Origin: Opeltia flavorubescens
Taxonomy: Eukaryota > Ascomycota > Lecanoromycetes > Teloschistales > Teloschistaceae
NCBI GenBank assembly: GCA_000442125.1
Contig: KE546981.1
Location: forward strand, 372,001-436,000
Direction of reading: 5' to 3'
DNA: 64,000 nt
How positions within the stretch are numbered: the first letter of the stretch is position 1; each line of letters opens with the position of its first letter. The position numbers and the translations under genes were made by a program. The notes below the pieces were generated by a model that saw nothing but the letters and a program-made list of their open reading frames with translations, ran no database searches and was not told the origin of the DNA. Shown piece by piece: positions 6,291 to 33,375 of the stretch.

Positions 6291-7294
6291 TTAATATGGT
6301 TTCTGTGCTGTATGAATCTTCCTGCATTAGCAATCAGCTTACGAACCTTGTAACGTGAATGCAGCATCAACTTACAGGGTAACGTATAAACGGCTACTAT
6401 CGCAATCATCGTTGAGGTTTTTACGGGCATCAGCAACAAGTTTCTCGGCTTCCTGTAGGGCCAGACCAGGAGCTTGGCTGATAATACTGACACCAGCTGT
6501 GCTAAGGAAGGCGAGGCCGTTTTCTAGGGCAAGCTTGCCAATGAGTTTTCCCTGAGCCGACTCCGGCCATGTTCCCATGGGCCATTGCAAATCTTGCTCC
6601 TGAATATTCACAAAACCATTTGCTCGGAGACGCTCCTGGCGCTGAGTCGGAGCGTCATAGTCGATACCTTTCGCTACCCAGTGGTTCTTCGCAATATGAC
6701 TCCATTCAATGAAGCTTGATGTAGCGTTATCGGCATTAGGATCTTGAGCTCGATAAGGGAAGCAGATATCGAGGAGCTCGAGCCAGCCGCCGGGTTCAAG
6801 GTGGTGCCAGCATTTGGAAAACAGCTTGGACCAGTCGTGAATACCGGTCATGATCATACGGCCGTGGATAAAGCTAAATGATTTATCAAAATGCCAATCA
6901 CGCTCTAGGTCTGCTTCGACGATCTGCAGGTTCGGTGGGCATGTCAGCTTAGGGGGCGTCAGGTCTACAGCAGTGATGTGAGAATCGGGACGCTCTTTGG
7001 CAATTGCGAGAGCCCATGTTCCTGTTCCGCAGCCCATATCGAGAATAGTGTCGATATGATCTGGGAGTGGTGCCATGTAGAGGCGACCATCGAGTGACAA
7101 AAGCCAAAGGCGATGCTGGAGATCTGGCAAAGTAAGCAAGCAACATCGTCAAAATGGGAAGAGCTTTGCCTAAGCGATCTCGTTCGGTCCATGAGTTGAT
7201 TAGTCTCGTAGACGTTCTTGTTTAGATTTTGAGAAAATACCACTTCATCCGGCTTCATCATCGGATAGCCAAGTAGCTCACTACGATCCGCCAT
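6291..7294 (-). CDS. UMTA/LaeA-like SAM-dependent methyltransferase, 5' part possibly frameshifted
   Basis: Exons: 6291-6321, 6376-7123 and 7170 to about 7294. SAM motif I is ILDMGCGTGTW, followed by AVDLTPP (acidic loop), HGRMIMTGIHDW and LEPGGWLELLDICFP, as in the LaeA/UMTA group of fungal secondary metabolism. The last intron (6322-6375, gtaagt...atgcag) joins YVTL to a 3' exon reading KIHTAQKPY, the usual C-terminus. The junction before LQHRLWLL needs an intron 7124-7169 starting with GC; it restores TERDRLDLQHR, and the sister gene at 30.2 kb has an intron at exactly this place with GT. Upstream, the ATG at 7294 (MADRSELLGYPMMKPDEV) is in a different frame from TERDRL and no ordinary intron reconciles them, so there is either a one-base frameshift near 7185 or an exon I missed. 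Acceptor substrate unknown; probably tailors the cluster product. Confidence 0.75.
7124..7169 (-). other. Probable GC-AG intron in the first UMTA methyltransferase
   Basis: On the minus strand the donor reads AG|gcaaag and the acceptor tgccag. Splicing gives the conserved ERDRLDLQH junction with G|AT forming the Asp codon. The intron position and phase equal those of the GT-AG intron at 31012-31057 in the paralogue. Inferred from the alignment, no transcript data. Confidence 0.6.
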
Positions 7295-8462
7295 TGACCA
7301 GAACCCTGATATGACTCAAACTACTATGCGTTTTAGGGTTTGTAAGATTCTGTGACTCAATTGTGAAATGGTGAGGTCGCTTCCCAAATTCGGCGAACAA
7401 AAGAGGATGCGACAAGGTGATCAATGATGGCACCCACCATCTCATGATGTGGAAGAGCTTTCGTGAAGGTCATTGGACAGATTATGATGATCCATCGAGA
7501 AAGCGAATAGAAAGAGCTCCCATTGGGTGGGCTTTGGTCTCACTTTACCTATCACGGTAGACGTGCATACTCATGGCTGCTGCCGTGAAAGTGAGTCATC
7601 CACAAAGACGAGATGGGACTGTACATCAGCCTGGACCTTCAGCTTATGAGCACTACCTGGCAGATCATATATATCAGCTGTGATTATCAAGATGACAGTC
7701 CTAGAGGACGCATTGTCAAAACATGTCTATTCTGTGAATTGACCAGATCTGATTGGGCTTAGCGGCTTTCGGCAACTCGTCCGATAGGTTCTTTGATCAG
7801 GTAAGGTAATCAATGCCTATCCGTTCCTGTCTCTCTTTCAACTCTATGACGAGACCAATCACTCGCCGATATCTTGCTTTTGGTCAATGCTTAAGGACCT
7901 TTTGCACCTAGAATCAACCAATACTATTTTCTGATCTTAACAAAGGCTACTCCGTATCCTCTTTGAAGAATGATTTACATTAAAGCGAAGGACTGACGAT
8001 GTCTATGTCTATTAGATACCCTGTTTCTACGGCTTGGCCTCACCATAGTCCTTTGCAATGGAAGTAGAGAGGCCAGTCAATATTTCTGGATACATGTATC
8101 CTGGAACCTGGACTCCTCTCATATCGACTACCCAATCTGTATTACCCACTATCATGCTGTAAGCACTATCAATGTGAAGCGGTTACTAATCTACGTGGGG
8201 GCACAATATTACCTAGCAGTCTGATCCATGCAGCTTTCTCTCGCCCGACTTCCCCTGTACATTTGTATGGTGCTTACCTTAGCTATCCATTTACATGGTG
8301 ACATACCCCCGCACTCCTGCGGAGAAAAGCGCGACCAGACCACCGAAGAATCAAATTTGATGGATCATGCTTGGAAGGGAATCAAAATTAAGATTCAGTA
8401 CGACACTTCAAACCGTTTAGCTAGACCAGACACGTTATCTAGAGATTGCATCTAAGACCATA
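7295..8462. other. Intergenic interval between methyltransferase and terpene synthase 1
   Basis: Nearly 1.2 kb with only short unrelated frames (75 codons or less). It holds the upstream region of the methyltransferase and the 3' flank of terpene synthase 1. No RNA gene or repeat recognised. Confidence 0.6.
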
Positions 8463-10033
8463 TCACAAAACTATTTCGATCCCTCCCTTCAACGTTTTGC
8501 AACCGAGTCCATATCGTCCCGAGACGAGGCTAAACCATCAAATTAGCAAGGAGCTTACATTAATGTGTGCAGGTATCATTGAGAGTCTGACCTCCAATTC
8601 ATATTCGCAGTACAAGCGCACCTGCATCCATGGATGAACTTCTGGAGCACAGACTGCATGTCTGGATCGTTCGCGTGCCGATCGATTAGCTGGCTTGCAG
8701 TCTTGTCAAAAGACGCAATGGCACTGTCTATCATCCGAACCGCATGGTCTATAGATGCCTCCAAGGTGCCATATTGCATATAAAGAAGCGGAATCAAGGT
8801 ATCGACTTGCTCTTGGTTCTGCATTAGAGCACTCGTCAGTCAGATTCGTCACCGATTCCATTCGAAGCAGAGCTCTTACAAATTCCTTCTTGAGTGAAAG
8901 AATGTCGTTTCCCCTAAGAGACACTCTTAGTTACTGCTATCGAAGGGTCACATAATCTAGCAAAAGCACATGGAGCCATACATGGATACAATGATGTTCG
9001 TCTCATGCCAGAGCACTTTCATATCGTCTCCAGCCATGATGTGCTGGGGTACTTCGATTCCAAAAGCATATCTGTTTCAAGTCAGTAGTGATAGATCCAA
9101 ACATCATTGGACACTGGCTCTGTCATTGCGAGACAAACTCGCACTGCACTTGATCCCATCCGTCTTTCTTCATACTCTTCAAGAGTTGGTAGCGTATTGC
9201 CCAATTGAATTTCCTGTTCAACATTGGCCATATTTATGAACAATAGCAGCTCATCGAGCAATTGTTGTTTCTGTGCTGGTTTTCATTTTTAAGCGTGGTT
9301 TTACTTTGTCTGCTTGTTGAAAACTTACCAGTGGTACTGGACTTTGCGATTGCTGGTCCCGATACTTGGAAAAACTCAATGATCGTGCTCGAAGGACGAT
9401 CCACGTCTAAGGCGTGTTCTTTGCTCGTCAAGCACTTCCGAATCCACTCAATAGTTTCTTCGCGGTATTTCTGAGCAGCGTGAAGATCAGACACGAGGGT
9501 AGCAAACTCAGCAGAGTCAGTTTCTGTTCGATGAATTACTTGATATTTTCGTTTGCAAGCTGTTCAAGAGAACCAACCGTCGTCCCACAGAAAAAGCTGC
9601 GAAGATTTCAGTACCGACTACAGTGGATCCAAAGCGAGAGAAATATCACTTAGGAACTCACCCAAAGGGACAGAAAGGTCACTGCCTTCAGCGCTTCGTA
9701 CGGGGCGTAAGGATACCAAGATGCTCCGAATAGTCCAATGTCTGCATGTCGTATCTTTTGCAGTCTTTTGGTTGGGACCAGAAACAGGCTCGTCAACATT
9801 ACATCAACATCCTTACGGAGACGATCGACTTCCGGATTGACGTATTGAGGCCAATGAGCCAAAGATGTCTCTATGTCGGGAATACGAAGACTACGACCTC
9901 GAAGTGATCCAAGGAGTTGATCTCTCAATGATTCTGCCTGTAATCCCATTATCACTGGACTTGTCGACGAAGGTGTATCTGGTCTTGTCTGGGTTAGGAT
10001 CGCAATGCGAAACGAGGCCACAAGAAACCACAA
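8463..10033 (-). CDS. Class I terpene synthase 1 (sesquiterpene-cyclase type)
   Basis: Eight exons on the minus strand: 9662-10033, 9578-9596, 9329-9523, 9119-9275, 8982-9071, 8880-8913, 8592-8818, 8463-8529; 386 aa from the first ATG (an in-frame Met 28 codons later is an alternative). The metal-binding DDxxD motif is WDDETD (Asp129-Asp133), created only after splicing a 19-nt micro-exon to the next exon. The second metal motif is NDILSLKKE (Asn280-Glu288), a perfect NSE triad. The C-terminus has HGCRCACTANMNWS and SGRYGLG, the Arg-Tyr pair of fungal cyclases. All exon phases agree and length fits the family (about 330-400 aa). Predicted to ionise and cyclise a C15 (or similar) prenyl diphosphate with Mg2+ in the cytosol; product unknown. 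It pairs with the methyltransferase just downstream and shares exon structure with synthase 2. Confidence 0.9.
9072..9118 (-). other. Probable GC-AG intron in terpene synthase 1
   Basis: Using donor GA|gccagt and acceptor aaacag gives MTEYAFGIEV, which matches MCLAITEYCFDMQIPPEV of synthase 2 without gaps; synthase 2 has GT at the same position. An alternative donor five bases further on (gtccaa, same phase) would insert two residues (Pro-Val). I prefer the GC site, but both keep the frame. Confidence 0.5.
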
Positions 10034-11200
10034 TAAATGATGGGGATATATACAAATATCATGAACGACAACTATTGCCGGAGAATATTTTCGGGGAATT
10101 ATTGACGGATCTTACCGAGCAACGGCACATATGCATGTCAGGCTTACAAAACACTTAGTTCGGTACGCCACATGTCAGTGCTGCATACATAGTGTTTTTA
10201 GCCGGTCTTGCAAGCCGCATGCTTATTTTCACTGCTTATTTATGGTCCTATGGCATTCATTCCAACCTTTTTTCCTTTTCCCATCTACCACTCACATCTC
10301 GATCTCGCTCTCCGAAATCCTTTGCTTGGTCTTATCTTCTACCACACCTTTTTTGCAACTTTCATACTTAATTACAGCCAAAGCATGTTCTGCAGATGTA
10401 AGCTGAAGCATGTTCATGACAAATCTCTCGAATGGGTTGCAGGCAGCTTGGGCATTGATTTATTTCTTCGACGAACGCTGATCCGTCACTGGCGACACCA
10501 GTCCAGACGAAGCCTCTAAGCACACTGGCTGCAATGCAATTGGCAAGATAGATCAGCTTGAGGATCACATAGTGCTTATCCACGATAAGAGTGCTGAGAA
10601 CAGAGTATTGACCGCAACAGCACTGTCAGCAAGTATGGCCATGCTGACAGGCTTCCGGGTCCCAGCCAAACCGACCGCCGCAATCAGTGGCCTCTTTCGA
10701 GCGCAACAGCCTCTAAGATATATCAAATACGAGGACACGACTCACGGTCTGGCGTGATCTTACAGCATGACGGGATCAGCTTTATCTTCTCCCGCCGACC
10801 ACCCAGTTGGATGAACAAATTGTACGAGCACCCCGTGTCAAAGGAGTCCTCTCGTAAGCAAGATTTCAACTGGCGCTCGCAATTGCTTGACCCCCTCTAT
10901 GTCGCTAATCTCACGGATGCTGGTGGCCTTCAATTCTCTATTTCATATCACGTTTTACATCATTGCGGTGCGCTTATACTATGTCGTCCTTACTTCCATC
11001 CTCGGCGCTTCCTATCGTCTTTCTCAAGTCGGCGCACCAAAAATCGACCGTATGGTTCAGGCTCAAGTTTGATCCATAGAATGCAGCTCGTGGAAATGTC
11101 GATGTACGGATTGACGTTTTTACGGAAAGAAAACGTGTGGGCATGCTGACATACACCGCAGGTATGAGCTTGATCCCCCATTTCGCTATATTCTACTTCA
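10034..11200 (+). other. Unresolved stretch with hydrophobic reading frames, possible broken membrane-protein gene
   Basis: The plus strand carries successive hydrophobic frames: around 10208-10410 (LIYGPMAFIPTFFPFPIY, GLIFYHTFFATFILNY) and around 10900-11000 (LFHITFYIIAVRLYYVVLTS), linked by good-looking donors such as gtaagc at 10398 with an acceptor at 10441. I could not join them into one protein without stops and recognise no family. It may be a degraded membrane transferase or transporter of the cluster, or only chance frames. The 5' flank of terpene synthase 1 also lies here. Confidence 0.25.
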
Positions 11201-13518: not shown

Positions 13519-15720
13519 CTAGTCACCGTGCAAGATATCGTCTGCTATCTTCTCTGCAAGAGCATCTGTTCGATGTTACGATTAGCGCCAAGGAATTGTA
13601 TAGCCGAAGCTTATTGCTTACATATTGTCGAAGACGGATGCCCTGGCGGAAGCACAGGGAAGGCCGATGCATCCACAACTCTCAGTCCTCGTACACCATA
13701 AACTCTTGCCTTCGAGTCTAGAACGGCCATAGGGTCTTCAGCTTTACCCATTGCACAAGTTGCCGAAGCATGATAGCTCGCCGCCGCGCTTCTCTGAATC
13801 AAATCCAGTATCTCTGCATTTGACGAGACATTCAAACCTGGGAAGGCTTCATCCCCAAGGACAATTGGACGTGTGGCATTATTCGTGAAAACGGCACGTG
13901 CTCTCTTAAATGCCGCGACTGCAACCTCCTGGTCCCGTCGGTCGAGCAGCCAATTTGGGCTTACGAGGGGACGGTCATTCGTATCAGTAGAGTTGATGGT
14001 GACGTTGCCGCGTGAGAAGGGATTCGTCAGAGCAGTTGAGGACGACACATAGCTTCTTCCATCTGTAGGCGCGCCGCTCGAATCGTTGGCGTAGCCAAAG
14101 TAGGCGTCAAGGAAGAGATGCTCGTAGTCAGGCCAATCTGAAGCAAATGAATCGAGTTGCTCACGTATGGAATCGCTAACAGCGCCGTCAGGCAGCCGAT
14201 CAAATCCTGCCCGAGGTCAACGTGTGCTGTGCGAAAAATGAGCTATACGGTGAAGTCTACCTAGAATGTCACCACCGCAGTTGGTTAGGATACCGGTACG
14301 GTTTGTATTGTAAGCCAGTCTCTGTTCTTCCGCAAAAGCGGGCGAAGAAAGCTGACTGTGTGTGGTTAAGTCTACTGCGTAAGCCGGACTGAATGCAATA
14401 TGATCCTGTTAACGATCAGCCTTTGGTATATACTTCTCCTTGCTTTACGAATGCTGTGCACCTACCCACATATTCTGCCCAACTCCTTGGAGATCAGACA
14501 GTATTGGTATCTGCAACGCTGCCAAAGTTGCACCTGGTCCAATCCCGGAGACCATCAATAGTTGAGGGGATCGAAACTGGAAGAAATAAGATACAAAAAG
14601 AGAGATAATGGGCGTCATAATATACTTACTGCACCAGACGAGACAATGACCTCTTTTGCAGCCTTAATTTGATACGTGATCCCCGCAGTTTCTACCACCA
14701 CAGCGCTAGCTTGCTTGTTGCCATCAAATGTGATCTTCTTAGCCATAGTGTTCTTGTAAACAAGGAGGTTAGCCCCCTCCGCAAGTGCCGCGCGTAGGTA
14801 TGAGGTTTCCGAGGAGCTTCTTGTTTGGCTTCGTGGATCTTTAGTGAAAGCAGTGTAGGTCCAGCCAAATATGTTCCCATCAGTCATTCCGGAAAGTTCC
14901 TTTAGTCCCAATGCACTGAGACCAAGGCCAATCCATGAGGAAATAGGATTCACCCAAGCCGGGTAGCCAACCTGAAGTGGGCCTCCGTCCGGGCTGAAAG
15001 CTGATTGATTATAGAGAGTTGTAGCGTTGGGTAACCGGGTTTTTTGATTTGGCGGGTGGAACTGGGCGCTTTTACGGAAGTAAGTGACGAAATTCTTGAA
15101 TTCATAGCTATCATCGCCGGTCATATCGGCCCACTTCTGATATGAGCCACATGATGATCTAGCCATATATTAGTTCACACCATTATGGTAGGTATCTTAC
15201 ACTCACCGATGGTACCACATGAAATTGCGCGCACTGCTGCCGCCAAGTACCTTACCCGTTGGATAGAGCATGATTCGATCTCCCAAACCCTAGATTCATA
15301 TCATGGTCATCCTTTCCTGGCAAGCTACTTATCGTTCAAGTATCGGAGACTTACGGTCTGCCTCTCTGTGTACTGATACCAGTCAAGTAAGGGGTTCTTC
15401 AATATTGGATTTGAACCAACGAATTGGGCAGCGTAGGCAGGTACCTCGCTGAAGTTCCCATTACTGAACTCGTAGAAGTCTCCAGCTTCAATGACAGCTA
15501 CAGAGACCGAGCCGTTTTCGGCCAACCGTTTTGCCAGCGTTAAACCGGCCGTACCACCTCCAGCGATGACATAGTCAAAGGATGCGTTCACGCCCGGGAC
15601 GCCAAAGTGAGAGCCAATGAGTCCTTGGGCAAGTAAAGTCTCGGTCAAGGTAGATGAGGCAAGAGTCACATAAATCAGTGTTTGCAATGTAATTGATACA
15701 AGACTCTTTGATAAAGACAT
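13519..15720 (-). CDS. GMC oxidoreductase 1 (secreted FAD-dependent, aryl-alcohol-oxidase-like)
   Basis: Seven exons on the minus strand: 15355-15720, 15207-15289, 14630-15158, 14466-14576, 14261-14405, 13622-14206, 13519-13565; phases agree and give 621 aa, the normal family size. The N-terminus [20 protein letters not shown] looks like a signal peptide. The FAD-binding fold follows ([19 protein letters not shown] and [16 protein letters not shown]), then the GMC signature [27 protein letters not shown] and GVGQNMWDH. Active-site residues are His557 in [11 protein letters not shown] and His601 in [10 protein letters not shown], so it should be a working oxidase or dehydrogenase of an alcohol. 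The final exon gives [14 protein letters not shown]. It lies between terpene synthase 1 and the SDR in the accessory block, suggesting oxidation of a terpenoid alcohol; the substrate cannot be read from sequence. Exon layout is the same as in GMC 2 at 22.8 kb. Confidence 0.9.
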
Positions 15721-17701: not shown

Positions 17702-18178
17702 GATTGTTAGAATGAGTGATACAGGCGACAGCACAGGTTCACTGCAGAGAAGCCAGGGAGAAGTATGTGATAGACTTAGATATAGATCGAAGATTTGTAC
17801 GAAAGTTCTGATACAAAAGCAAGAGATGCGAAAACATTACTAAGCTCGATACGGAAGCCTGAATGGAGGCGAGAGGCACTCCAACATTCGGAAATGGCAG
17901 CCATGATGCTTGCATGAGGCAATTACCAGAATCCTCGAGGGGTATCTGCATTATAGGAATGATAAGGCATATATTTCAGGCACATTGTAGTACACCATCT
18001 CGAGGTCTAAGGTAGAGATTTGCCCGAAGCGTGCAGCTGACGGCATATGCAAAGATAAGTTTCAAGGCATATTAGCCTGCGCACAGCATCGCAATCTTAG
18101 TGCTACGCCAGATGTCATACATAACAGGAGTTGTCCGGGTTCCTCTCACATCTTTCAATCTCAACATTGAATCTAGCA
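17702..18178. promoter_or_regulatory. Divergent promoter region, SDR and terpene synthase 2
   Basis: The 477 bp between two divergently transcribed cluster genes must contain both promoters. No specific operator could be identified by eye. Confidence 0.45.
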
Positions 18179-19812
18179 ATGGCCGTCGGTCTTGTGGCAA
18201 TGGGTGCTCCCATGGCGCTTTTCCCCCAGCCATCGTTCGGAATGTCCACCGATTTGAAAGTAGTGGAATCCAAAATCGACACTCGAGACGATCTTCTCCA
18301 TGCTCTGCGCGGACAGAGGCTCAATATCCCCGATCTGGAAGCGCTCATCAGTCACTGGCCGCATAGCGTGCATACCCAAATTGATCATTTGCGGGAGGAC
18401 GTGAACCAAAAGCTTCAAGAGTACGGCCGCTAGACTTCCCCATTTCGTCGTGAGCCGCAGACACGAGTTAATATCTAATTCATCTTAAAGGCTGTTCCCA
18501 GAGGGTGAAAGGCTTGGCAAGATGAAAGCTGCAAACGCAGCTCTATTTGGAGCCTCGTGGTGGCCCTATGGATCGTACGAGACCTTGAAAATCGCAACTT
18601 ACCTTTCTATCTGGGTATGGCTTACCCCCAGTTCTCGAATGTACGAGGCGATTTGGCTGACGAGTAATCAGCTTTTCGTATGGGATGACGGCAAGCAAGC
18701 CCACTTCAGAGCAAGCTGGACTTCTGACTGATGTCTTGAAAAGAAAGTGATTCTACCGAATTCTCCTCCTTGATTTGCGATTATGACCGATCACGAGAAT
18801 TCCGGGCGGAGACAATTGAATACGCCAGACATTGCCTATCTGGGCTCGAAGACGAGCCCAAATCGAAAGTGCCGACAAATAAGATCATCGCAAGCTTCAA
18901 GCCGATCGGAGAGGCTATTTCGAGGTCTTGCACAGCAGGTGTGTCGGGGAAATCAGCCGTCGGAAGCCGCAGGGTGAGCTGATTTAGAGTTTGTAGACCA
19001 GATTGAATCTTTCTTCAAAGAATTATTGTTCTTTGTTGAAATGACAGATGTCGAACAACAAGTGCTGCTGAGCAAGCAGCTCCCCAGCGTCGAAGATTAC
19101 CAAAGACGCAGGATGGGCTCAAGTGCCGTAGGCATGTGTCTGGCTATCACGGAGTATCACCCATACGAATATGAAATTTCCGAGGGCCTTCACTAATAAG
19201 CAGCAGGTACTGTTTCGACATGCAGATTCCACCAGAAGTAATGAAAGATAAGGATATGCAATCCTTGTGGAATGAGACAAACGTTATCATCTCGACGTAT
19301 GTATACTGGTCGAGTTCCCCTGAAGACTTGAAAAGGGACTGAAGTAGCTTGTATTTGGCAGGATGAACGATATGCTCTCCATACGAAAAGAGGTTGTAAG
19401 CAGTCCACTTGATACAAAGACTTCACCCTTCAAACGACTAAACTATCATGACTTTAGCTGCAGAGTCAAGTCGACACGCTAATCCCATTGCTGTACGCTC
19501 GACATGGCACCTTGGAAGCAGCAATGGGTAAAGCCATGGAGATACTCGAGGGCTCTGTCGCCGCATTCGACTTGTCCGCACAAGACCTGCTCGGACGTTA
19601 CGCTATGGATGCGGAGCTTCAGGGGAAGCTTCAGAAGTTCATCTACGGGTGCAGATGTTCCTGCACAGCGAACCTTCAGTGGAGGTTAGCCGCCTCAATT
19701 CTCATCGAATTTCACTTCTCCAAAGATACTAATAGAAAACCGTAGTCTTCAATCCGGACGATACAAACTTGGGACAAAATCTTTACGTGGTGGCGTTACG
19801 ATTACACTGTGA
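18179..19812 (+). CDS. Class I terpene synthase 2
   Basis: Nine exons: 18179-18420, 18491-18614, 18672-18690, 18744-18938, 18988-19153, 19207-19296, 19362-19395, 19464-19684, 19746-19812; 385 aa. The second motif NDMLSIRKE (Asn281-Glu289) is an intact NSE triad. The first motif becomes VWDDESDS (Asp127-Asp131) only if intron 3, which begins with GC, is removed; without it the frame reads WDDGKQ and stops. The C-terminus YGCRCSCTANLQWS and SGRYKLG matches synthase 1. Exon lengths 19, 195, 90, 34 and 67 nt are identical to synthase 1, with one extra intron in the 5' part. The acceptor of intron 7 has two candidates (19457 or 19463). Expected role is Mg2+-dependent cyclisation of a prenyl diphosphate. 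Sequence divergence from synthase 1 is substantial, so the two may make different skeletons. Confidence 0.9.
18691..18743 (+). other. Probable GC-AG intron inside the DDxxD motif of terpene synthase 2
   Basis: Donor GACG|gcaagc, acceptor gaaaag|AA. Removal restores DDESDSTEFSSLICDYD, aligned with DDETDSAEFATLVSDLH of synthase 1, whose intron here has GT. No GT donor near this point would keep the frame and the motif. Confidence 0.7.
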
Positions 19813-21157: not shown

Positions 21158-22114
21158 TCAAGATGTGCTCACGCCACCAAGTGCTTGAAACCCGGCGATC
21201 ACGTCAATGGTCCAAGTAGTCAGCTGCTTCGGCTGGCTCAAGAAGGGAGAATGACTTGTGGCAAAATTTTGAACCGTCCACTGAACTCCGGTTTGCTGCA
21301 ACATTGCATCCTGGGCAGCGGGTACAATGGCATTATCAAGAGTGGTGTGTGCATAAGCTCTTCGATTGTCATAGGCATCATCAGCCCATGCTGGGGGGCC
21401 ACAAGGTGTCTCCGCTGAGTGTCGAGACTGATTCCTCAGCTCAGCGATCGCAACTTTGGCTAATGCCTCTGGAACGTCGTTGTACAAAGTTTCCTTGGCA
21501 TCCCGAACACCAAGTTGGCCATCATCCTAAGTCCAAAAAGGCTCATCAGCCATGGACTAGCCAAGTGGCTACCATTGAGCGACAGCCATCTATGTGAGAA
21601 GACTTACATATTCAATCACCCAAGGAGCGTACGCTCCACCACTAGCACTCAAAAGGGATTGTCCTTCTTCGGCAAGGAAGGCACTGATGAAGATCAGGCC
21701 AATGATACCGCCAGGTTTCCCTGCGGCACGACGTTCTGGAATGCTGAGCCCCTTTGCGGCCATGGCTCCTGGTCCCCCGCTGTAGGAATGCATGATGACC
21801 ACAACTTCCCTGCCAGCATTGATGAATGGCATAAGGAGAACACTCCGAATGAATTCAGCATCGCGGCCAACGGACTCAGCTGCTGGGTTGGATGAGTCGC
21901 AGCTCGGTAGACGTCGTGTGCTAATTGTGTAGCCATTGGCCTCGAGCTGATCAGTATACGCACGGTAGTGTACTGGTGCGTGCCAGGCTGCCGGAACAAG
22001 GGCTATTACAGGGTTTCGATCTGCGGGGGCAGCAAAAGAGCCAGGGGAATCAGTCATGATAATTGATACGGCCAAAAGAAGATGCACGACCTTCAAGGGG
22101 AAGAATCTAAACAT
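21158..22114 (-). CDS. Alpha/beta hydrolase with N-terminal signal or anchor
   Basis: Two exons, 21608-22114 and 21158-21526, with an 81-bp intron (gtaagt...acttag); 291 aa. The N-terminus MFRFFPLKVVHLLLAVSIIM is a signal peptide or membrane anchor. The fold starts VIALVPAAWHAPVHYRAY (oxyanion loop) and carries the nucleophile elbow MHSYSGGPG with Ser in HSYSG. A C-terminal ATSHSPFLSQP supplies the catalytic His, as in the group of fungal hydrolases that read HSPFLS there. The acid residue was not assigned. Length and domain order are normal. Such enzymes hydrolyse esters, lactones or epoxides; in this setting it may open or deacylate the terpenoid, but that is inference from position between terpene synthase 2 and GMC 2. 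Confidence 0.85.
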
Positions 22115-22812: not shown

Positions 22813-25165
22813 CTAGGTAGCTATTGAGTCCAACATGATATCTTCCGCAATCTTCTCAGCCAATGCATCTATAGTATGAATCATCAGAAGAGAACTCTGC
22901 CATATCGTTGGAGTAGGGGGCACGTACAAATTGTTGCCGAAGGCTGGCCGGTAGGAAGAAATGGGAAGATAGAAGCATCTGCAATGCGTAGATCAGATAC
23001 GCCAATCACATGACCTTTGCTGTCGACAACTGCGAGCGAATCATTCCTCCTGCCCATTTTATTGGTTCCAACAGCATTATACACAGAATTGGCACTGTTT
23101 CTTATCATTTCCACTATCTCAGAGCGCGATGTGATATTAGCCCCTGGATATTCTTCCTTCTTGACAATAGACTTGACAGCTTCGGTGGAGAAAAGATGGC
23201 GACCGCGCTGGAAGGCGGCCACCGCCATGTCAAGGTCTCGGGGATCGCTTAGCCAATTAGGACTGATTACTGGGTTATCGGCGGTATTGGATGAGTTGAT
23301 GGAGACATTGCCTCTAGAGAAGGTTGCAGGAAGGCCTACAGACGCTGCAACGTATTGATCGAACGTACCAACACCGGGTACAGGGTTACCGGATCCAGTA
23401 CCGAAATAAGCATCCAGGATCAGATACTCGATGTGCGGCCAATCTTCGGGAAATTCGTTTTGCAGCGCTTGGTATGTTGAATTACTTAATGTGTTTTTTG
23501 GAAACTTTTCAAAGCCTAAAGAATATATTCCATCAGCAGAAACTCGAAAGTATGATGCAACATCCTGGTCCTTGGCTTCGTGTAATGAGTGAGATTGTCT
23601 CCGATTACGAGATAACGCAAAGAGGGGCCAGAATTACCTGCAATATCTCCTCCTACGTTAGTCAAGATACCCGTTCTATTGTTGTTATATTCATCGACTG
23701 CCTGCGCAAGGAAGTCTGGGTTTGAGAGACTGCTGTGTGTCATTACATTGACCGAGTATGATGGCCCCACAAGTACGACATCCTGCGGTAGCATCAGCTA
23801 GACGTCCGTTAAGAGTCTCTTTGCTAGGGAAAGAGGGTAACATCGACAGAATTGGAGAGAAACAAAGCACCGGAGCCTATCATGCCGACATACCCACATG
23901 TTCTGGCCAACTCCTGGGCGATCAGAGACCACATTGATATCATTACTGTCAAGGACATCTTTCGGCCCAACACCACTCACCATCAGCAGTTGAGGTGACC
24001 GCATCTAACAGAATCTGGGATTTAATAAAATCTTGGGCATTCAAAGACGGAGAGGACACACCACTCCAGCTGAGAGTATCACTTCTCGACGAGCATCAAT
24101 ATTGAACGGCATCCCTCCACTATCAACTTCTACCCCTTTTGCTGCTTTGTTCTCAAATCTGATTCGTTTTGCCAGTGTATTCTTATACATGATCAAATTC
24201 GTGTTTTGGATTAATGCTTCGCGGAGAAACGCTTCCGAGGAGCTTCTCGTCTGCGTCACCGGATCTAATTGGTAAGGTAGCCATGACCAGCCCAGTAGAG
24301 TACCGCTCAGGAGACTCGGCAGCTCTTTCATGCCCAATTCGGTGAAAGCTCGACCTAGCCAGGAAGATATCGGATTCACCCATTGAGGGTAGCTCACCTG
24401 GACTGGGCCCCCTGTCGGACTCCAATCCGAAGCGTTGAATTGGACAGCCGTGTTTTCCGAGCGCTGAGTTGCGTTAGGTGGGTGAAATTGCTTGCTCCGT
24501 TGAAAGAATGGTAGGAGGTTGTCGAAGCTGTAGCTGTCGTCACCCACTTGGCTTGCCCATTTGTTAAAGGCACCGCAGGATCCTCTCCAATTCCACATTC
24601 AATCAGTATGATTTCGGGTACTTGTAACACGGATCGGTGCGTCTCCGTTCTTACCGCATTTCCCACAAAAAGTTCCGTCCACTTGTTCCACCTATCATCT
24701 TGCCAGAATCATACAAAGCTCGACGGTGACCGAGAGCCTAGAGAGTTCGTCAATTTTGTCTCAGGCATTGGTTATCAATTTTTCCGAGCCGCCATGACAC
24801 ATACTCACCGGTTGCGGTTCCGTGTAATGATACCAATCTAACTGCCGATTCTTCTGCTCTGGATCATTCCCAGTGAAAAATGACGCATACGCCGGCACCT
24901 CCGACAGGTTCCCGTTGCTGAACTCGTAGAAATCACCGGCCTCGATGATAGCTACACTGAACGTGCTATTCTGTGCGAGACGACGAGCTATCGTCAAACC
25001 AGCTGTGCCGCCTCCTATGACGACGAAATCGAAAATTGCAGAGCGTCCTGGCACGCCGAAATGTGATCCCATCAGGCCTTGGGCGCTTATGGATTCTTCG
25101 TAAAGTCTTGCTGTTGTGATAGAGGTGTAGAGAATGGCGAGGGGGATGAGGATTGTAAGCTTCAT
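22813..25165 (-). CDS. GMC oxidoreductase 2, full length but lacking both active-site histidines
   Basis: Seven exons on the minus strand: 24809-25165, 24655-24737, 24062-24584, 23894-24004, 23638-23782, 22928-23515, 22813-22868; 620 aa. Exons of 83, 111 and 145 nt are the same length as in GMC 1. [21 protein letters not shown] is a signal peptide; the FAD fold is intact ([35 protein letters not shown]), as are [15 protein letters not shown] and [12 protein letters not shown]. The catalytic positions differ from GMC 1: NAVGTNKMG has Asn553 instead of His, and [10 protein letters not shown] has Gln597 instead of His. There are no stops or frameshifts, so the protein is still under selection or only recently changed. 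It may have lost oxidase chemistry and act as a non-redox enzyme or binding protein, as some GMC members (for example versicolorin B synthase) do not oxidise their substrate. It lies between the hydrolase and the P450. Confidence 0.88.
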
Positions 25166-25810: not shown

Positions 25811-27859
25811 CTACAACGAGCCAGCCAATCCCATCGCCCTGGTGATTTTCACCCTAACCCCAAGACTCTCCGGAGAAGCCACCCCAATGAAGCAGTCCCT
25901 TACAGCATCCACATCCCTCTCACGAATAGTATCGAAAATCTGCATATCGAAGCGTCGGAACAAACAAGCGAAGGTGATGTAAAGCTCCGCCCATGCCAAA
26001 CTAGAAAAGCGCGCACAAGCATTATTAGCATGGTGTGCTACGGAAAAAAATCACTTCTTCACCCAACGGCGATGATGATGATGATGATGGGGTGACACGA
26101 CGACGTACTTGAGTCCAACACACATGCGGCTACCGCGTCCGAATGGTACGTACACCTGATTGATACGTTGGAGGTCCGGGTTTTCTGGAAGCCATCTTTC
26201 GGGTAGGAAGTCTAGGGGATTGGCAAAGACGGTGGGATCGAGGAGGATATCGCGTATGGTCATGCTGACTGGTGTCTGTGAAGCTCATTAAGCGGAATGT
26301 TAAGCGTCGCGCAGATACTGATTTGGAGAAGGATAAGGAAATGACTTACCCCTGCAGGAATTTCCCACTCGTTGTACTTGAGGGCTTCTTTAGGAGAGAC
26401 CAGAGGCAAACGAGACGTTACGAGAGCAGTAATTCGTAAGGACTCTTTCACGACTGCCGTCTGCAGGGCCTATTAGTCAACGTCCGCTACAATAATGAGG
26501 ATCCTCGAACTCACCAGCCAAGGCAGCGATTCCAGAACATGCATAGGGACTCTAGAATCCCAGTCCACCAGAACAGTAGCCAACTCCTTTCTCAATCTCT
26601 CAAGTACTCTCTCCCTGTTCTCCAAGATATGATACGCGCCTGTAGTCATAACCCGAGCCGTTGTCTCGCTGCCTGCCACAAGGATGACAAAGCCTTCTTG
26701 CGCGATCCTATCCCGTCGCTTCTCTTTCTCGGACAAATGCTTGCTTGAAAGAAGAGTTTTGAAAAGGTTCCCATAGCCGGTAGGGGAAGGCGTCCCAGGA
26801 ATCCCAGGGAATTTCTTTTCATTGCCTATTTGATCTTCTTGGATAGCCGTTGCAGCTTGGTTGTACAGACTCTGTATAGATCCAGAGCGTTAGCGGGCGT
26901 GAGACTCCAAACAGCCTCTTGAGTGGAAGCCTACTAAACGCAAAGCCACAATCCTCGCAAGGTCAGGCACCACCAACCGAAGGAGAACCAACGGTATCTT
27001 CAAAGCGGTCGGAATGATCCACGTGAACTGCTTAATGAGTGGTGTAAGAACCGCGATCGCTTTAGTCGTACGTTTCCATTCAGCAGCCGCTTGCTCATTT
27101 GACAGCAGATCCAGCGATCGATCGAACGCATGATGTGAGAGCGTGTCTGTTGTCAGAGCCAGAAAGATTTGCTGCAGTTCCACGACTTCGTTGCGAGCCA
27201 GCTTCCTTTTGAGGAGATGACCTAGCAATTCCATCTTGTCATATATCATGTTCTCGGAACTTGCTATGGTCGCTTTGGAAAAAAAGGGGCTCAGCGCTGC
27301 TCGCCGTTTTCGATGAACCTCGTGTGAAACCGTGCCAAAGACTGGCGATCAAAATTAGCAGTGAGGATCAATGGATAGAGTCTACTTACCACCGTCGGGA
27401 GTACCCGTCATATGCGCCGCTGGGGGATACTTATCCCTTATACCCTTGGAAGCTTGATTAAAAGTAGTGCCGAACGCCTTTTTGGAATACTGACCGACGT
27501 TGGACCCGTATACAAAGTCCCGAACCAGTCCGAGTCTCTGACATGGATTTCTGCCGGATTGATACGAACAATTGGTCCTACATACATCATTACACTCTTC
27601 CTACACCTTTTACAGGAAAAATGTATCAAAAATTACCATAGATATCGTGCATGCGCTCAATCTCGTACATGAAAGTACCACCAGGAGCCACAACAAGATC
27701 GAACCAAAACTCGTACCATTTTGTCGCTGCTGCGAGTCTTGGGCCGGGAAATTTTGAAAGTGGATGGTAGAACAGCCGATAATAGACCAAGCAGATAACG
27801 TACGAGACCGAGGCTGCAAAGGCTAGCAATATCTGACTCCAGGATAGCATGTTGACCAT
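25811..27859 (-). CDS. Cytochrome P450 monooxygenase
   Basis: Eight exons on the minus strand: 27637-27859, 27495-27577, 27390-27444, 27342-upstream start of intron bounds giving 26935-27341, 26515-26871, 26350-26460, 26109-26275, 25811-26000; 530 aa, phases consistent. The N-terminal membrane anchor reads MVNMLSWSQILLAFAASVSY, followed by FYHPLSKFPGPRLAAATKWY, typical of fungal ER-bound class II P450s. The I-helix has AGSETT (residues 322-327), the K-helix ExxR is KESLRI (Glu381-Arg384), the PERW motif is present and the haem loop is PFGRGSRMCVG with Cys464 as the haem ligand. The last intron splits the codon of GLN|LAWAELY. HRKRRAALSPFFSKATI in the middle is the usual C-helix of the group near trichothecene-type P450s. 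Expected to hydroxylate the terpene skeleton with a separate reductase; substrate unknown. Confidence 0.92.
26071..26089. repeat. (GAT)6 microsatellite inside the last P450 intron
   Basis: Six GAT units. Read through on the minus strand it would encode a run of His, but the flanking gtacgt donor and ttctag acceptor place it in an intron. Confidence 0.85.
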
Positions 27860-28679: not shown

Positions 28680-29926
28680 ATGTTGGCTCGAGATGGAAGA
28701 ACGTCGATCATCGTCCTGACAGTGCTTACGATAGTCTCGACCACTTTTCTGGCTCTACGTTTGTTGAAGCGCAAGAAACTTGGTGTCGATGACTGGCTTC
28801 TCTGTCTTACGTTGCTTGTCATCTACCTGGACGATGTCCTTGGTTATCTCTGTAACAATCCCGCCCCCGGTGTATCCAATAGCAACCACACTGATGAAGG
28901 ATATCCTAGGGGCCATCAAAGGTGGCGAAGGTGCGCCGATGTCCTCACTCTCTCCCGACCAGGTTGAATGGTTCCTAAAGGTAGATTTCAAATGTCTTTC
29001 GTCGCAACTTTCGCTAAATCCATGTGATACAGATGGCATTTGCACCGGAGATTGGTTATACTTTTCTTGTCGTGACCCTCAAGATTTCAATTTTGATATC
29101 CTATTACAGGATCTTTGGCACGCTCCGTTGGTTCCGCTGGGCATGCTACACTGTAGCTACATTTGAGGCAATCTGGTTTGTGGGTGTCTTCTTTTCGATA
29201 CTGTTCCAGTGTATCCCCGTTCAGAAGGCTTGGAACCCTACCTTACCGGGGCATTGCATCAATTTCCTGGCTTTTCTTTGGGCGAACTCCATCTCCAATG
29301 CCGTACTGGACTTTGTAGTCTTGTTGCTACCTATCATACCGGTTTTGAACCTTCAAATGAGCATTGAACAGAAGGTCCTGGTCCTGTTATCTTTTTCGCT
29401 CGGGTCCATGTGAGCGCCCACTCTGGACCCCATTCTTGGAGAGGGGCATGAACGCTGACTCGATCAAATACAGAGCGAGTATCGCGAGCACAATGCGTGC
29501 TGTAAGAACTAATACCGTGGATCTGAATAATTTCTCCGGTATTTCTTCTCTTGGTTGTTTCGGCTCTTTCACTAATGGATCTATTTAGGTACGGTTTTCC
29601 AAGATGCCATTTGGACCTACATCGAACCTCATGCAGGAATGCTCTCTGCGTGCTTGCCGTGTCTTGCCAAAACCTTCGGGCAGACGATTCTGAAAGGCTT
29701 CAATACAATACTTAAATCCGGATCCAGATTAGCTTCTCTTGTGAGCTCTCGCTCATCTCGCTCAAGCTCGGAGGGAAGCAAAGCAGAATTCGACATCGTT
29801 AATTCCAAAACGCAAAGAGCCGTCTATGAGTCGTACGAGTTAGGTACCGAAGACAGAAAGGAATTCTCTACTTTCAAAGACAACATGAAAGGCAAGAGCA
29901 ATGAGTCAATGAGGCAGCTCGTCTGA
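28680..29926 (+). CDS. Fungal rhodopsin-domain (SAT4-like) integral membrane protein with a frameshift
   Basis: Exons 28680-28980, 29033-29409, 29474-29538 and 29589-29926. It begins MLARDGRTSIIVLTVLTIVS (first helix), then KLGVDDWLL, the DD motif of the SAT4/PTH11-like rhodopsin-domain family. Later segments are VEWFLK, PEIGYTFLVVTLKISILISY and WANSISNAVLDFVVLLLPII, further helices; the tail is Ser-rich. Inside exon 1 the frame must shift by one base between the VDDWLLCLTLLVIYL part (frame of the ATG) and the VISVTIPPPVYPIATTLM part, around 28800-28820. The only in-phase splice there would be a 31-nt intron (gtaaca...aatag at about 28849-28879), too short to trust and cutting the helix. So the gene is either frameshifted or has a sequencing error. 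Function of this family is unclear; it may be a membrane component or sensor related to the cluster. Confidence 0.75.
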
Positions 29927-30149
29927 ACACATGGCTCCGTAGCACCGTCCAGAAAGAGCATCCGTGCTTGTGGCGAATAGTGTACTACTAGGACTGATAG
30001 CACGCGCGTTCATATTGGGGTTTCGCTTCATTTGACTTGGTGGGAAAATGACGGACAATTCTTGAGAGGTTGGTAACGAGATCGACGATTCTTCAATGAC
30101 CTACCAGCACCTCCCCCTCGGTGAACAGCCTGAAGCCGCACTATTTGAT

Positions 30150-31181
30150 TCATTCGCAGCTTTCGATGCAGTTAGGTTTACGTGCCGTATGGATCATTCT
30201 AGAGTCAGTGTTAGCTTTACCCTACAATCAGAGTAGTATATATGTTGGTACATCGTTAAGTAAAAGTTGCGAGTACAGCAATTCCCTGCCAAGTCCTCTG
30301 AAGCTGCTTTCACCAAATCCTGGGCCTCTTGGTCCGTGATATTCGGGTCTTGCCTTAGGATCTTTGCACCTGCTGCTGTCACGAAATTGTTGAAATTCCA
30401 CAGGGTCAGATCTCCTATCAGCCGCTCTCGTTCGTTCTCAGGCCATGTTCCAAGCGGCCATTTCAACTCTCTTTCTTGGATATCGATGAAGCCAAGTTCC
30501 TCAAGTCGCTTGACATGTTTCGTTGCAGCACGGTAGTCCAGGCCTTTTAGAGCCCAGCAATGCTCAGCCGTACGACCCCATTGTAGGAAGCCTGACTTTG
30601 GGGAGCTACCGTCTTTGCTTGCATCAAGGTTCTCGGCTCCAAATGGGTGGCATATGTCTAGCAATTCTAGCCAGCCGCCGGGTTGAAGGTTTTCGAAACA
30701 TTGACGCAGGAGTCTTGGCCAATCATGGATACCAGAAGTAAGCATACGCCCGTGTATGAAATTGAAGGGCCGTTCAAATGCCCAGTCGTTCTCGACATTC
30801 AGCCTCATGAATTTGACATTTGAAGGATGTGTGACGCTTGGTGGCGTTAGATCAATGGCAGTGATAGTTCTTCCAGGATGATGCTTAGCCATGTCAAGGC
30901 TCCAGGCCCCAGTACCACATCCAATATCGAGGATGTCTCCACTGCCAGTGGGCAATGGCACAGTATAGAGACGGTCGTGGAGCGTGAGTAGCCAGATCTG
31001 ATGCTGGAGGTCTGATAGAATAAGCCAAGATAACTTCGTTGGAACCAAAGGATTTACCCAGCCGTTGCTGCTCATCCTGCGATAGACTTCAGCGATCATC
31101 GACCTCCAACGATAGATCTAGTCTCACCGTCCCATCTGAAGCAACCATCACGTATTCTTCATGCTCCCCCGCATCGGCCAT
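30150..31181 (-). CDS. UMTA/LaeA-like SAM-dependent methyltransferase 2
   Basis: Four exons on the minus strand: 31128-31181, 31058-31076 (19 nt), 30252-31011, 30150-30198; 293 aa. The splice model recreates DEQQRLDLQHQIWLLTLHDR, the conserved entry to the catalytic domain, and a C-terminus MIHTARKPNCIESCE in place of a read-through. SAM motif I is ILDIGCGTGAWSLDMAK, with AIDLTPP after it, HGRMLTSGIHDWPRLLRQ, LQPGGWLELLDICHPF and LKWPLGTWPE. It matches methyltransferase 1 over its whole length with conserved intron positions, but uses ordinary GT donors and has a clean frame, so this copy is probably the working one. The N-terminus before the catalytic domain is very short for the family. Probably transfers a methyl group to the cluster metabolite or acts in regulation as LaeA does; the sequence does not decide. 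Confidence 0.88.
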
Positions 31182-31589
31182 GTTTTGGAATCAAGCAAAG
31201 AAGTTCACCCGATAAATTGCGATGGAACCCAGGGTTGAACTCTCCAAACACTTATCAGTAGCACAGGTGTGTTCATAGCATGTGCGATGTAATTATGCGG
31301 CCTGCATGCATTCAACCCCACCTACTTTGCAACGCGAAAGGCTGTCATCATGTGTTTCCAGATGTTTGGTACACCTTGTCAGCGAACCCGTGCCCAGTGA
31401 AATACTGGAACACAGTTAATACCGTGGTATGACGTTGACTCATTATTTATCCTTTTCTTTGCTGCGGGGGATCATCCTCTCGCAATTTGCCTGGTTGTTA
31501 CACAGTAATTTCGGCTCTTTCTGTAGTCCTGGTTAGCCACGTTGAAAGAAGCTTAATCGGATTGTGCTTGTGTAGCTCGATGAAGAATC

Positions 31590-32345
31590 ACTCACACGCT
31601 CAAGTAGTAAAGTCGCGTCGTACAGTCATAGTTAAGGTCATTTTAAGCTTGATCTCTCAATTTCTGGGCACCTTGCCAATCGATATCATTATCCTGCTCA
31701 AGAATGTTGAGGCCCGAAGTATCTAAGAATTTTTTAAGTTCTCCAGAGTCAATACGCCAATTTGTCGTTCCGTCGGCGCTTGCTGCCATTTATCCAGCGG
31801 CCACTTGGACTGCTCTTCAATTACGTTAACAAAGCCAGGGTCTTGGAAGATTTGAACTCGCTTCAACGTGTTTTTCCAATCGATTCGCTTTGCTGTCTAT
31901 GCCTTCGATCATATATATCCCTATTTGATCCAAGGCGGAGACGGAGGATCATCAGCTGCTGGGAGCTCAGCATGGTCAAGCTCCAGCCAGGCTCTTGGTT
32001 TTGAGATGATCCCAGCACCGACGAAGGAAGGTGGGTCAATTACGTAAAAGAGCAGCGAAGATTCCACCGCGGATAGAAGTAAGCTGCTGCTTGATATTCT
32101 AGTCCTCGTCTGTGTTTCATTTGGTGACCGAGTTATTTAATGGGACTCGAGCAGAGGGAGTCGAATTAGCAGTGATTATCTGTGCTGCTGGGAATTCATT
32201 AGTTATAGCAGTTGGCTGACCTCCATTCCCGCAGCCTATGTCAAGGATAGATGTCGTATCAGCTGGAAGTGGAGCAGCACAGAGCCAATGACCCAGACGA
32301 AGAATCCATACTTGTTGTTAAAAATCTGGACAGTCGGTACTGGCG
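31590..32345 (-). pseudogene. Degraded third UMTA-like methyltransferase
   Basis: Translated on the minus strand the region shows the family in order but broken. LCAAPLPADTTSILDIGCGNG (motif I) lies near 32240, FLRRCWDHLK near 32010, then stops, then a cleaner tail with EEQSKWPLDKWQQAPTERQ near 31800 and NYDCTTRLYYLS near 31600. These align with ELKWPLGTWPENERERL and GNCCTRNFYLT of the intact copy next door. Several in-frame stops (for example before QQVWILRLGHW) and at least two frame changes make a functional product impossible. It is a tandem relative of the 30.2 kb gene in the same orientation. Confidence 0.8.
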
Positions 32346-32929
32346 GAGTAATATTGACTGTACTTACTTAAGCGGTTTTGTCCATCCTAAACGATATGAC
32401 TATGTCAATTGCGAGACATTTTGATAGACTTCTATACACGCACTTACCTCTACATCCAGCTTCGACAGGAGGTAATCAGAGCTTTCGCTTGGAGCCATTG
32501 ATTCTGTGGCCTTCAGATGAAGGTTTGAACTATAGAGAAGGAGAGGAATCGGGTTCTTCGGGCGTCACCTGGTAGTGTACCAAATACAACTACGGAATAA
32601 TTACGGACTGTCAGGTCTTCATCGTAACGAAAGGTAATTCGTCACAGAAAACTGCACTTTGAACAGACAGATGCAATTTTGGCAAATCCTTTTTTTTCTC
32701 CTTCGTCTGCAACAGAGATTATCCTACACACATTACTTGACTTACGGGATTATGACTGGCAGATATAGCACTTCAATAAACTGCTTTCTAAGAACAGTGC
32801 ACGGGCAAATTGTATCGTTCCTGACCTACATGCATCGCCGAGACTTAAGTCTGAATCGCTCAACATCTTGTTGGAAGAATCCAACTGCAGGCTGACCATC
32901 GCTTGAAGTATCTTCTCGATGATTTACGG

Positions 32930-33375
32930 CGGCGTTACATGCAGTCTGTCAATCCCGCTTTAGCTGGAACATCTTGGTGTCCATATGCTTGATTCGATAC
33001 CTTGAGAATAGCTACGTACTTATCAATCCGTGTACGTTGTTGAGAGCCTGAGTAGGTCAGAATGTTCTTTTCGACTTACTGGCAATGCAGCTGTACTGCT
33101 AGGATAAGGGCAAGTTGGCGCAGGCCAGCCTGAGTCAACAATGATTAGTGGTTACAAAATACAGAAATCGAGTTCTTGCAATTCGACATGCTCGCGTCTT
33201 ACTGGGAACGAGCTCAGCGCTTCCAGACAATGACCATAAAGTCTATTCGAGGATGCTTGACCATAGACCGAAGACCGAAAAGGAGTTTAAAACAGAGCCC
33301 CAGCAGCAAGCCATCATCGCGAGTTTTGAAGCGATTGGGACATCTATCCACCAAGCTTACCTACCTGGTGATTAG
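32930..33375 (+). pseudogene. Degraded third terpene synthase fragment
   Basis: On the plus strand MQSVNPALAGTSWCPYA, a stop, then FDTLRIATYLSI (32937-33030) aligns with the segment AANAALFGASWWPYGSYETL and KIATYLSI of synthase 2. Further on KYRNRVLAIRHARVLLG (from about 33151) matches REFRAETIEYARHCL, and IIASFEAIGTSIHQAYLPG (to 33372) matches IIASFKPIGEAISRSCTAG. The DDxxD region between them is unrecognisable and the NSE half is missing. It is a truncated, dead copy facing away from the dead methyltransferase. Confidence 0.75.

What the first reader, a model, noticed from the sequence alone, without database searches (positions are those of the whole stretch)
6291..33375. Possible undescribed terpenoid cluster built from duplicated modules
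Two intact terpene synthases with a third dead, two UMTA-like methyltransferases with a third dead, and two GMC oxidoreductases lie within 27 kb together with an SDR, an alpha/beta hydrolase and a P450. Within each pair, exon lengths and intron positions match (for example GMC exons of 83, 111 and 145 nt). I infer a core synthase-methyltransferase-oxidase module that was copied and then diverged. I do not recognise this gene combination from the described clusters I know.
Basis: partly seen in the sequence, partly recalled or inferred. Interest (0 to 1): 0.82.

Follow-up and report, generated by a model that had tools for sequence, protein, structure and literature searches.

The report
Conserved fungal terpene gene cluster
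A stretch of a fungal genome holds a terpene-making gene cluster whose core genes recur close together in other lichens and moulds, and one of its oxidase-like enzymes belongs to a branch that has lost the two amino acids such enzymes normally use for catalysis.

Summary
From about 6.3 to 33.3 kb lie two open class I terpene synthases (TS), two methyltransferases (MT), two PatE-type GMC flavoproteins, a P450, an SDR, an alpha/beta hydrolase, an unlisted rhodopsin-domain membrane gene, and wrecks of a third MT and TS. Pairs are 48-53% identical with matching exons; MT1's 5' end finds no GT-AG splicing. 'One module copied' is only partly right: in no family are the window's two copies each other's closest relatives (AU p 0.004 TS, 0.001 MT, 1.7e-65 GMC). 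The GMC split is old (both types occur in lichens, Leotiomycetes and Sordariomycetes); TS and MT split later, inside a clade whose named members are Teloschistales lichens. Best account: an old, patchily kept TS-MT-GMC1-GMC2 cluster. Of named GMC1/GMC2-type rows 21 of 31 share a contig with a TS or MT hit, against 2 of 65 other GMC rows. New here: GMC2 and its clade (24 of 24 sequences) replace the first catalytic histidine by Asn, and 21 of 22 the second by Gln, so GMC2 is probably no ordinary alcohol oxidase. The product is unknown; the papers searched gave no matching described cluster.

The parts
6291..7294 (-). MT1: class I SAM methyltransferase (UMTA/LaeA-like); core intact, 5' end unresolved
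   Evidence: Pfam Methyltransf_23 E 8.5e-17; 243 aa of the core read the same as P0103 (by eye); no all-GT-AG route to a start
8463..9949 (-). TS1: class I terpene synthase, 8 exons, 360 aa, DDETD/NDILSLKKE
   Evidence: groups with Seirophora and Kuettlingeria genes, 100/98
13519..15720 (-). GMC1: PatE-type GMC oxidoreductase, 7 exons, 621 aa, catalytic H557 and H601 present
   Evidence: 100% identical to P0222
16730..17701 (-). SDR, single exon, YxxxK present (by eye)
   Evidence: Pfam adh_short E 1e-21
18179..19812 (+). TS2: class I terpene synthase, 9 exons (one GC-AG intron), 385 aa, DDESD/NDMLSIRKE
   Evidence: groups with Xanthoria and Gallowayella genes, 99/97
21158..22114 (-). alpha/beta hydrolase, 2 exons, 291 aa
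   Evidence: Pfam Abhydrolase_6 E 6e-11
22813..25165 (-). GMC2: PatE-type GMC fold, 7 exons, 620 aa; Asn553 and Gln597 at the sites of the catalytic histidines
25811..27859 (-). cytochrome P450, 8 exons, 526 aa, heme loop FGRGSRMCVG
   Evidence: Pfam p450 E 1e-46
28680..29926 (+). fungal-rhodopsin-domain (Pth11-like) membrane protein; exon model not finished
   Evidence: Pfam Fung_rhodopsin E 5e-38 on one exon
30150..31181 (-). MT2: class I SAM methyltransferase, 4 exons, 293 aa
   Evidence: 100% identical to P0102; AlphaFold model pLDDT 90.3
31568..32365 (-). MT3: decayed third methyltransferase copy
   Evidence: tblastn E 1.8e-20 (P0105), stops in all frames
32864..33271 (+). TS3: decayed third terpene synthase copy
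   Evidence: tblastn E 8e-11 (P0001), stops

Best explanation
This is a mono- or sesquiterpenoid biosynthetic cluster of an ascomycete, probably a lichen former near Teloschistaceae. An ancestral cluster held TS, MT and two already distinct PatE-type GMC proteins (GMC1, GMC2); later, on the line to Teloschistales, TS and MT doubled, and a third TS and MT have since decayed. Proposed working (inferred): TS1 and TS2 cyclise GPP or FPP; P450, SDR and GMC1 (FAD, His/His) oxidise the hydrocarbon; MT1/MT2 methylate an oxygen or carboxyl; the hydrolase acts on an ester or epoxide; GMC2, which keeps the FAD fold but has lost both catalytic histidines throughout its clade, does a non-oxidase step (for example a cyclisation or dehydration, as recalled for versicolorin B synthase) or assists GMC1. 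Shown: gene content, motifs, trees, contig co-occurrence, histidine loss. Inferred: every reaction, and the ancestral gene set.
For: Motifs and Pfam. Relatives lie close together elsewhere by locus tag: Kuettlingeria Q9207_000447 (TS1-type and GMC1-type in one annotated protein)/448 (MT1-type)/450 (GMC2-type); Loekoesia Q9225_000728 GMC2/730 MT1-type/731 GMC1; Hymenoscyphus 4247 GMC1/4248 TS/4250 MT; Pleosporales CAS-2024a 6277 MT/6279 TS/6280 GMC2; pairs in Squamulea (two species), Letrouitia, Xanthoria, Plenodomus (types). Contig sharing with a TS or MT hit: GMC1/2 clades 21 of 31 named rows, other GMC rows 2 of 65, Fisher p 1e-11. Trees and AU tests. GMC2 clade: Asn at the first catalytic His in 24 of 24, Gln at the second in 21 of 22 with a residue there; AlphaFold of a clade member, best PDB match PatE, TM 0.91.
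Against: No product, expression or antiSMASH data. For the two non-lichens with both GMC types on one contig (Apiospora, Tricladium) I saw no full set of close tags, so the four-gene ancestral cluster is an inference. The Fisher test treats related species as independent, and rows near the query come from organisms whose TS and MT are near too. Only the best 120 of 493 MT and 120 of 2679 GMC hits were seen. P450, SDR and hydrolase membership rests on position here and on three fused annotations. Subtypes mix: Kuettlingeria has TS1, MT1 and GMC2 types together. MT1 may be broken. The organism is inferred from gene trees alone.
Confidence: 0.68

Rival explanations
1. One reading: one TS-MT-GMC module was duplicated locally as a unit and the two copies diverged.
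For: Pairs share exon lengths and intron positions; in some Teloschistaceae type-1 genes sit together (Kuettlingeria TS1, MT1, GMC1) and type-2 genes sit together (Squamulea MT2 and GMC2, Xanthoria TS2 and GMC2).
Against: Window pairs as sisters rejected: AU p 0.0042 (TS), 0.0012 (MT), 1.7e-65 (GMC). The GMC split is shared with Apiospora and Tricladium, the TS and MT splits are not; so depths differ.
Confidence: 0.12
2. The cluster was spread between ascomycete classes by horizontal transfer, so that the wide GMC1/GMC2 distribution says little about age. (Compatible with most of the best explanation.)
For: Patchy distribution over several classes, with hits in single Aspergillus, Apiospora and Stachybotrys species.
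Against: In the trees the Teloschistales rows group together and apart from the Xylariales and Aspergillus rows, as vertical descent with loss would give; not formally tested.
Confidence: 0.3
3. The genes are an accidental neighbourhood of expanded families, and GMC2 is simply decaying.
For: GMC and P450 families are large in this genome (57 and 93 matches); dead copies are present.
Against: Co-occurrence 21 of 31 against 2 of 65; Asn in 24 of 24 and Gln in 21 of 22 while the glycine-rich FAD motif is kept; only nine positions set GMC2 apart that strongly and two are the catalytic pair.
Confidence: 0.08
4. GMC2 is a photoenzyme like fatty acid photodecarboxylase (FAP), another GMC protein without the histidine pair.
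For: FAP has Q620 at the second His site (PMC7824139, passages), as GMC2 has Gln.
Against: At the first site FAP has Ala, GMC2 Asn. The Arg of patulin synthase that PMC11664916 likens to FAP R451 (R433) seems to fall in a column that is Arg in 9 of 9 GMC1 rows and in none of 24 GMC2 rows (Tyr in 14, one gap) (mapping by my own count, unsure). FAP itself was not aligned.
Confidence: 0.03

Closest known systems
TS-MT-GMC gene neighbourhoods of Teloschistaceae, Hymenoscyphus and Pleosporales (database entries without function)
   Same: same three families, close locus tags, orthologous subtypes
   Different: the window holds both TS types and both MT types at once, plus decayed third copies; no other record with all of these was seen
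Patulin synthase PatE (PDB 8bxl)
   Same: sequence family and fold of GMC1 and GMC2 (E 3e-160 for GMC2)
   Different: PatE and GMC1 keep both catalytic histidines, GMC2 has neither; patulin is a polyketide, not a terpenoid (recalled)
Versicolorin B synthase-like GMC proteins (P0321, P0325, P0332, P0317; 'VBS-like' is my label, from the names given for P0321 and P0332)
   Same: both catalytic histidines lost (Ala, Gln)
   Different: separate clade, 100/100, so the loss looks independent; that VBS does no net redox is recalled
Xylariales mono/sesquiterpene synthases (PMC4757406, passages)
   Same: P0012 from Hypoxylon EC38 is 47% identical to TS1; WDDE and NDxxS motifs of the same kind
   Different: different clade; the words gene cluster and methyltransferase do not occur in the paper's text; whether P0012 is one of its tested enzymes was not checked
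Squalene-synthase terpene clusters conserved in lichens (PMC11457338)
   Same: conserved terpene clusters in Lecanoromycetes
   Different: different core enzyme; abstract and sections 14 and 18 report two widely distributed clans, both squalene synthase

Membership tests
Class I terpene synthase | Aspartate-rich DDxxD/E motif | tested here: met
   DDETD (TS1), DDESD (TS2)
Class I terpene synthase | NSE/DTE motif and C-terminal RY | tested here: met
   NDILSLKKE, NDMLSIRKE, SGRY in both
Class I terpene synthase | Cyclisation of a prenyl diphosphate | not testable with these tools
   no assay
GMC oxidoreductase (PatE type), GMC1 | FAD glycine motif and catalytic His pair | tested here: met
   GGGTAG, H557, H601
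GMC oxidoreductase (PatE type), GMC2 | FAD glycine motif and fold | tested here: met
   GGGTAG in GMC2; fold from AlphaFold of clade member P0224, not of GMC2 itself: best match PatE TM 0.91
GMC oxidoreductase (PatE type), GMC2 | catalytic His pair (AAO H502/H546, PatE H564/H608) | tested here: not met
   Asn and Gln at the aligned sites
Versicolorin B synthase | membership of the VBS-like clade | tested here: not met
   four VBS-like rows form their own 100/100 clade apart from GMC2
Fatty acid photodecarboxylase | active-site Arg and Ala/Gln pair | tested here: inconclusive
   Gln shared, first site Asn not Ala; Arg absent by an indirect mapping
LaeA/UMTA-like class I methyltransferase | SAM-binding Rossmann fold with GCGTG motif | tested here: met
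   Pfam, AlphaFold and Foldseek
LaeA/UMTA-like class I methyltransferase | substrate (small molecule, prenyl diphosphate or regulator role) | not testable with these tools
   Foldseek matches listed include phosphoethanolamine, juvenile hormone acid, GPP and FPP methyltransferases
Local module duplication | paralogues are each other's closest relatives | tested here: not met
   AU tests
Characterised MIBiG cluster | same gene set as a known cluster | not tested
   no antiSMASH or MIBiG here; papers only

The most novel reading that the evidence does not exclude
GMC2 founds an undescribed, class-spanning branch of the GMC flavoproteins that traded the catalytic His pair for Asn/Gln and does a non-oxidase reaction in terpenoid assembly, working beside its canonical relative GMC1; together with TS and MT it marks a previously unnamed, widely kept terpenoid pathway of ascomycetes, possibly with methylation before cyclisation (C11/C16 products).
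Probability: 0.35. Interest if true: 0.75.

Novelty: new variant of a known kind. Interest (0 to 1): 0.6.

Why it matters
In a survey of 111 genomes, mostly lichen-forming fungi, most terpene clusters were unique, apart from two squalene-synthase clans (PMC11457338; abstract and sections 14 and 18 read). A TS-MT-GMC core shared between lichens and moulds would give a further conserved terpenoid pathway, testable in culturable hosts such as Aspergillus avenaceus. A whole GMC clade without the catalytic histidines is a ready test case for new flavoprotein chemistry.

Tried and rejected
Repeat-induced point mutation as the cause of the dead copies: the two indices for 31.3-33.4 kb (0.77, 1.27) are near the whole-window values (0.67, 1.29), so no sign. 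Fatty acid photodecarboxylase reading of GMC2: see rivals. Methyltransferase function from structure: generic class I folds, no decision; sequence search against PDB likewise. Paper searches for a described TS-MT-GMC cluster or for the His loss; open papers only, so absence is weak. Other GMC genes of the own genome: the six taken are 36-49% identical to GMC1 and fall outside both GMC clades; the C20 synthase is on a long branch. The GMC tree used the quick method and defines the clade lists; the 45-row careful tree agrees for the rows it holds. Rows dropped before trees: synthase hits under 300 aa, P0061 and P0079 (P0079's synthase part was used); methyltransferase hits beyond P0191 and unnamed ones under 215 aa; GMC rows under 470 or over 799 aa and all but three beyond P0299, so 'other' includes rows not placed in a tree.
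Full report
What is there. The window is contig C17:372001-436000 of a 34.4 Mb, 23-contig fungal genome. I built spliced models by hand from three-frame translations, checking each intron for donor, acceptor and frame. From left to right: MT1 (-), TS1 (-), GMC1 (-), SDR (-), TS2 (+), alpha/beta hydrolase (-), GMC2 (-), P450 (-), a rhodopsin-domain membrane gene (+), MT2 (-), a dead MT (-) and a dead TS (+). TS1 and TS2 carry DDETD and DDESD, an NSE motif and a terminal RY; their exons of 19, 195, 90, 34 and 67 nt are equal, the 19-nt one bearing the start of the Asp motif. GMC1 and GMC2 share the 83, 111 and 145 nt exons. GMC1 and MT2 as modelled are identical to database proteins P0222 and P0102 from source 'lgn'. 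MT1's core reads the same as P0103, but no all-GT-AG splicing route links it to a start codon.

Borders. To the right lie an ankyrin gene, a WW-domain gene and a sugar transporter, further on a JmjC/PLU-1 gene, thymidylate kinase and an HDA complex subunit. The 10 kb to the left of the window hold long open frames without a match to the cluster's proteins (what they are was not tested).

Relatives. The synthase profile finds 101 proteins, fungal wherever an organism is named; the MT profile 493, of which 120 were listed; the GMC profile 2679, of which 120 were listed; each search scored only about 8000 candidates. The database prints no gene context, but contig lengths and locus tags tell some. 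Close tags join TS, MT and GMC in Kuettlingeria (447, 448, 450), Hymenoscyphus (4247, 4248, 4250) and Pleosporales CAS-2024a (6277, 6279, 6280); MT and two GMC in Loekoesia (728, 730, 731); MT and GMC in Squamulea squamosa (2975, 2977), Squamulea sp. (7401, 7403) and Letrouitia (7999, 8001); TS and GMC in Plenodomus (5804, 5805) and Xanthoria calcicola (9614, 9618). One Kuettlingeria record (P0079) fuses a synthase with a GMC domain, as annotation of neighbours can do. Pyrenochaeta P0155 joins an Abhydrolase_6 domain (31% to the window's hydrolase over 160 aa) with the MT, Ikaeria P0273 a P450 piece (34% over 101 aa) with a GMC, and Chlorociboria P0271 a rhodopsin-domain piece (29% over 78 aa) with a GMC. 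As a control I compared GMC1/GMC2-type rows with the other GMC rows of the same list: 21 of 31 (GMC1 5 of 9, GMC2 16 of 22) against 2 of 65 share a contig with a TS or MT hit (Fisher p 1e-11; 96 rows with an organism name of 120). Related species are not independent, so the p value is too small.

Trees. In the synthase tree TS1 goes with Seirophora and Kuettlingeria and TS2 with Xanthoria and Gallowayella (both also with unnamed rows); together they form a clade (100/98) whose named members are Teloschistaceae (family recalled); next come Hymenoscyphus, Halenospora and the lichen Lasallia. MT1 goes with Loekoesia, Pyrenodesmia and Kuettlingeria, MT2 with Squamulea, Gallowayella and Haloplaca; both lie in a clade (88/95) with Brigantiaea and Letrouitia. 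GMC1 goes with Loekoesia 731, Peltula, Tricladium, Hymenoscyphus, Rosellinia, Emericellopsis, Apiospora; GMC2 with Squamulea, Xanthoria, Loekoesia 728, Peltula, Tricladium, Halenospora, Aspergillus, Plenodomus, Stachybotrys, Apiospora, that is with five or more classes (classes recalled). Forcing the two window copies together is rejected in each family (AU p 0.0042, 0.0012, 1.7e-65). So the GMC pair is older than the TS and MT pairs. Apiospora and Tricladium have GMC1 and GMC2 types on one contig with an MT, Apiospora also with a TS, which suggests an ancestral TS-MT-GMC1-GMC2 set; both contigs exceed 1 Mb, and only the Apiospora TS and GMC1 tags (12251, 12246) are known to be close. The positions of the window genes suggest a lichen fungus near Teloschistaceae; this was not tested otherwise.

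GMC2. Aligned to PatE and aryl-alcohol oxidase, GMC2 has Asn and Gln where these have the catalytic histidines (AAO H502 and H546: PMC12198266, passages; PatE H564 and H608: PMC7824139, section 24 and passages). Over all 120 listed hits: GMC2 clade, first site Asn 23 of 23, second site Gln 20, Glu 1, gap 2; GMC1 clade, first site His 13 of 13, second site His 10, Thr 2, Ala 1; other rows, first site His 80 of 84, the four exceptions being versicolorin-B-synthase-like with Ala/Gln. With the window gene the GMC2 counts are 24 of 24 Asn and 21 of 22 Gln. Nine positions are at least 90% fixed in GMC2 and at most 12% elsewhere; two are this pair. The AlphaFold model of a clade member (P0224, 69% identical to GMC2, mean pLDDT 82.9) matches PatE best (TM 0.91, 1.8 A). 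In the 45-row tree the VBS-like rows are a separate clade, and the nearest relatives of GMC2 (80/85, not strong) are three rows with only the second His of the pair replaced (HQN; Cladophialophora, Flavoplaca, Lecanora), as a stepwise loss would leave. I infer that GMC2 is kept for something other than the usual alcohol oxidation.

Mechanism. TS1 and TS2 should make a mono- or sesquiterpene; family members from Xylariales make both (PMC4757406, passages). P450, SDR and GMC1 would oxidise it, MT methylate it, the hydrolase cleave an ester or open an epoxide. The role of GMC2 is open; a cyclisation or dehydration is my first guess by analogy with versicolorin B synthase (recalled, not from a call). 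The methyltransferase fold does not tell the substrate; methylation of the prenyl diphosphate before cyclisation is possible but has no support of its own.

Known or new. PMC11457338 (abstract, sections 14 and 18, and passages read) found 724 terpene clusters, most of them unique, two widely distributed clans, both squalene synthase, and none grouping with a characterised cluster. PMC9907504 (one passage read) counts 99 terpene cluster families in its data. The word GMC does not occur in the main text of either. I found no paper describing this gene set (searches listed under Tried and rejected), in a library of open papers only.

Noticed in passing
L037 and L038 (own genome C20:213600-224000); L039 (C15:1098400-1101800): A second terpene cluster: a synthase with the 19-nt Asp-motif exon and DDEID, a GMC with both histidines (by eye), a P450 related to the window's and a FAD-binding (BBE-like, by eye) oxidase. 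A further synthase-GMC pair lies on C15.
   Followed up: partly
18691-18743; MT1 at about 7169-7123: TS2 uses a GC-AG intron, and MT1's second intron would too; unusual to see two in one cluster.
   Followed up: no
about 34080-34130 (-): A short stretch reading LQKPDEVILVS resembles the start of MT1 (KPDEVVFS); perhaps the 5' scrap of a further methyltransferase copy. Seen by eye only.
   Followed up: no
rows P0247, P0251, P0274, P0294, P0320, P0323, P0324: GMC rows with the first catalytic His kept and the second replaced (HQN); three of them are sister to the GMC2 clade in the 45-row tree: a possible halfway state.
   Followed up: partly
own genome C6:308939-318155 and C14:1417609-1420835: GMC and P450 matches also lie side by side on C6 and C14, without a synthase hit there.
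   Followed up: no
60958-62313: A flavin monooxygenase-like gene outside the cluster.
   Followed up: no
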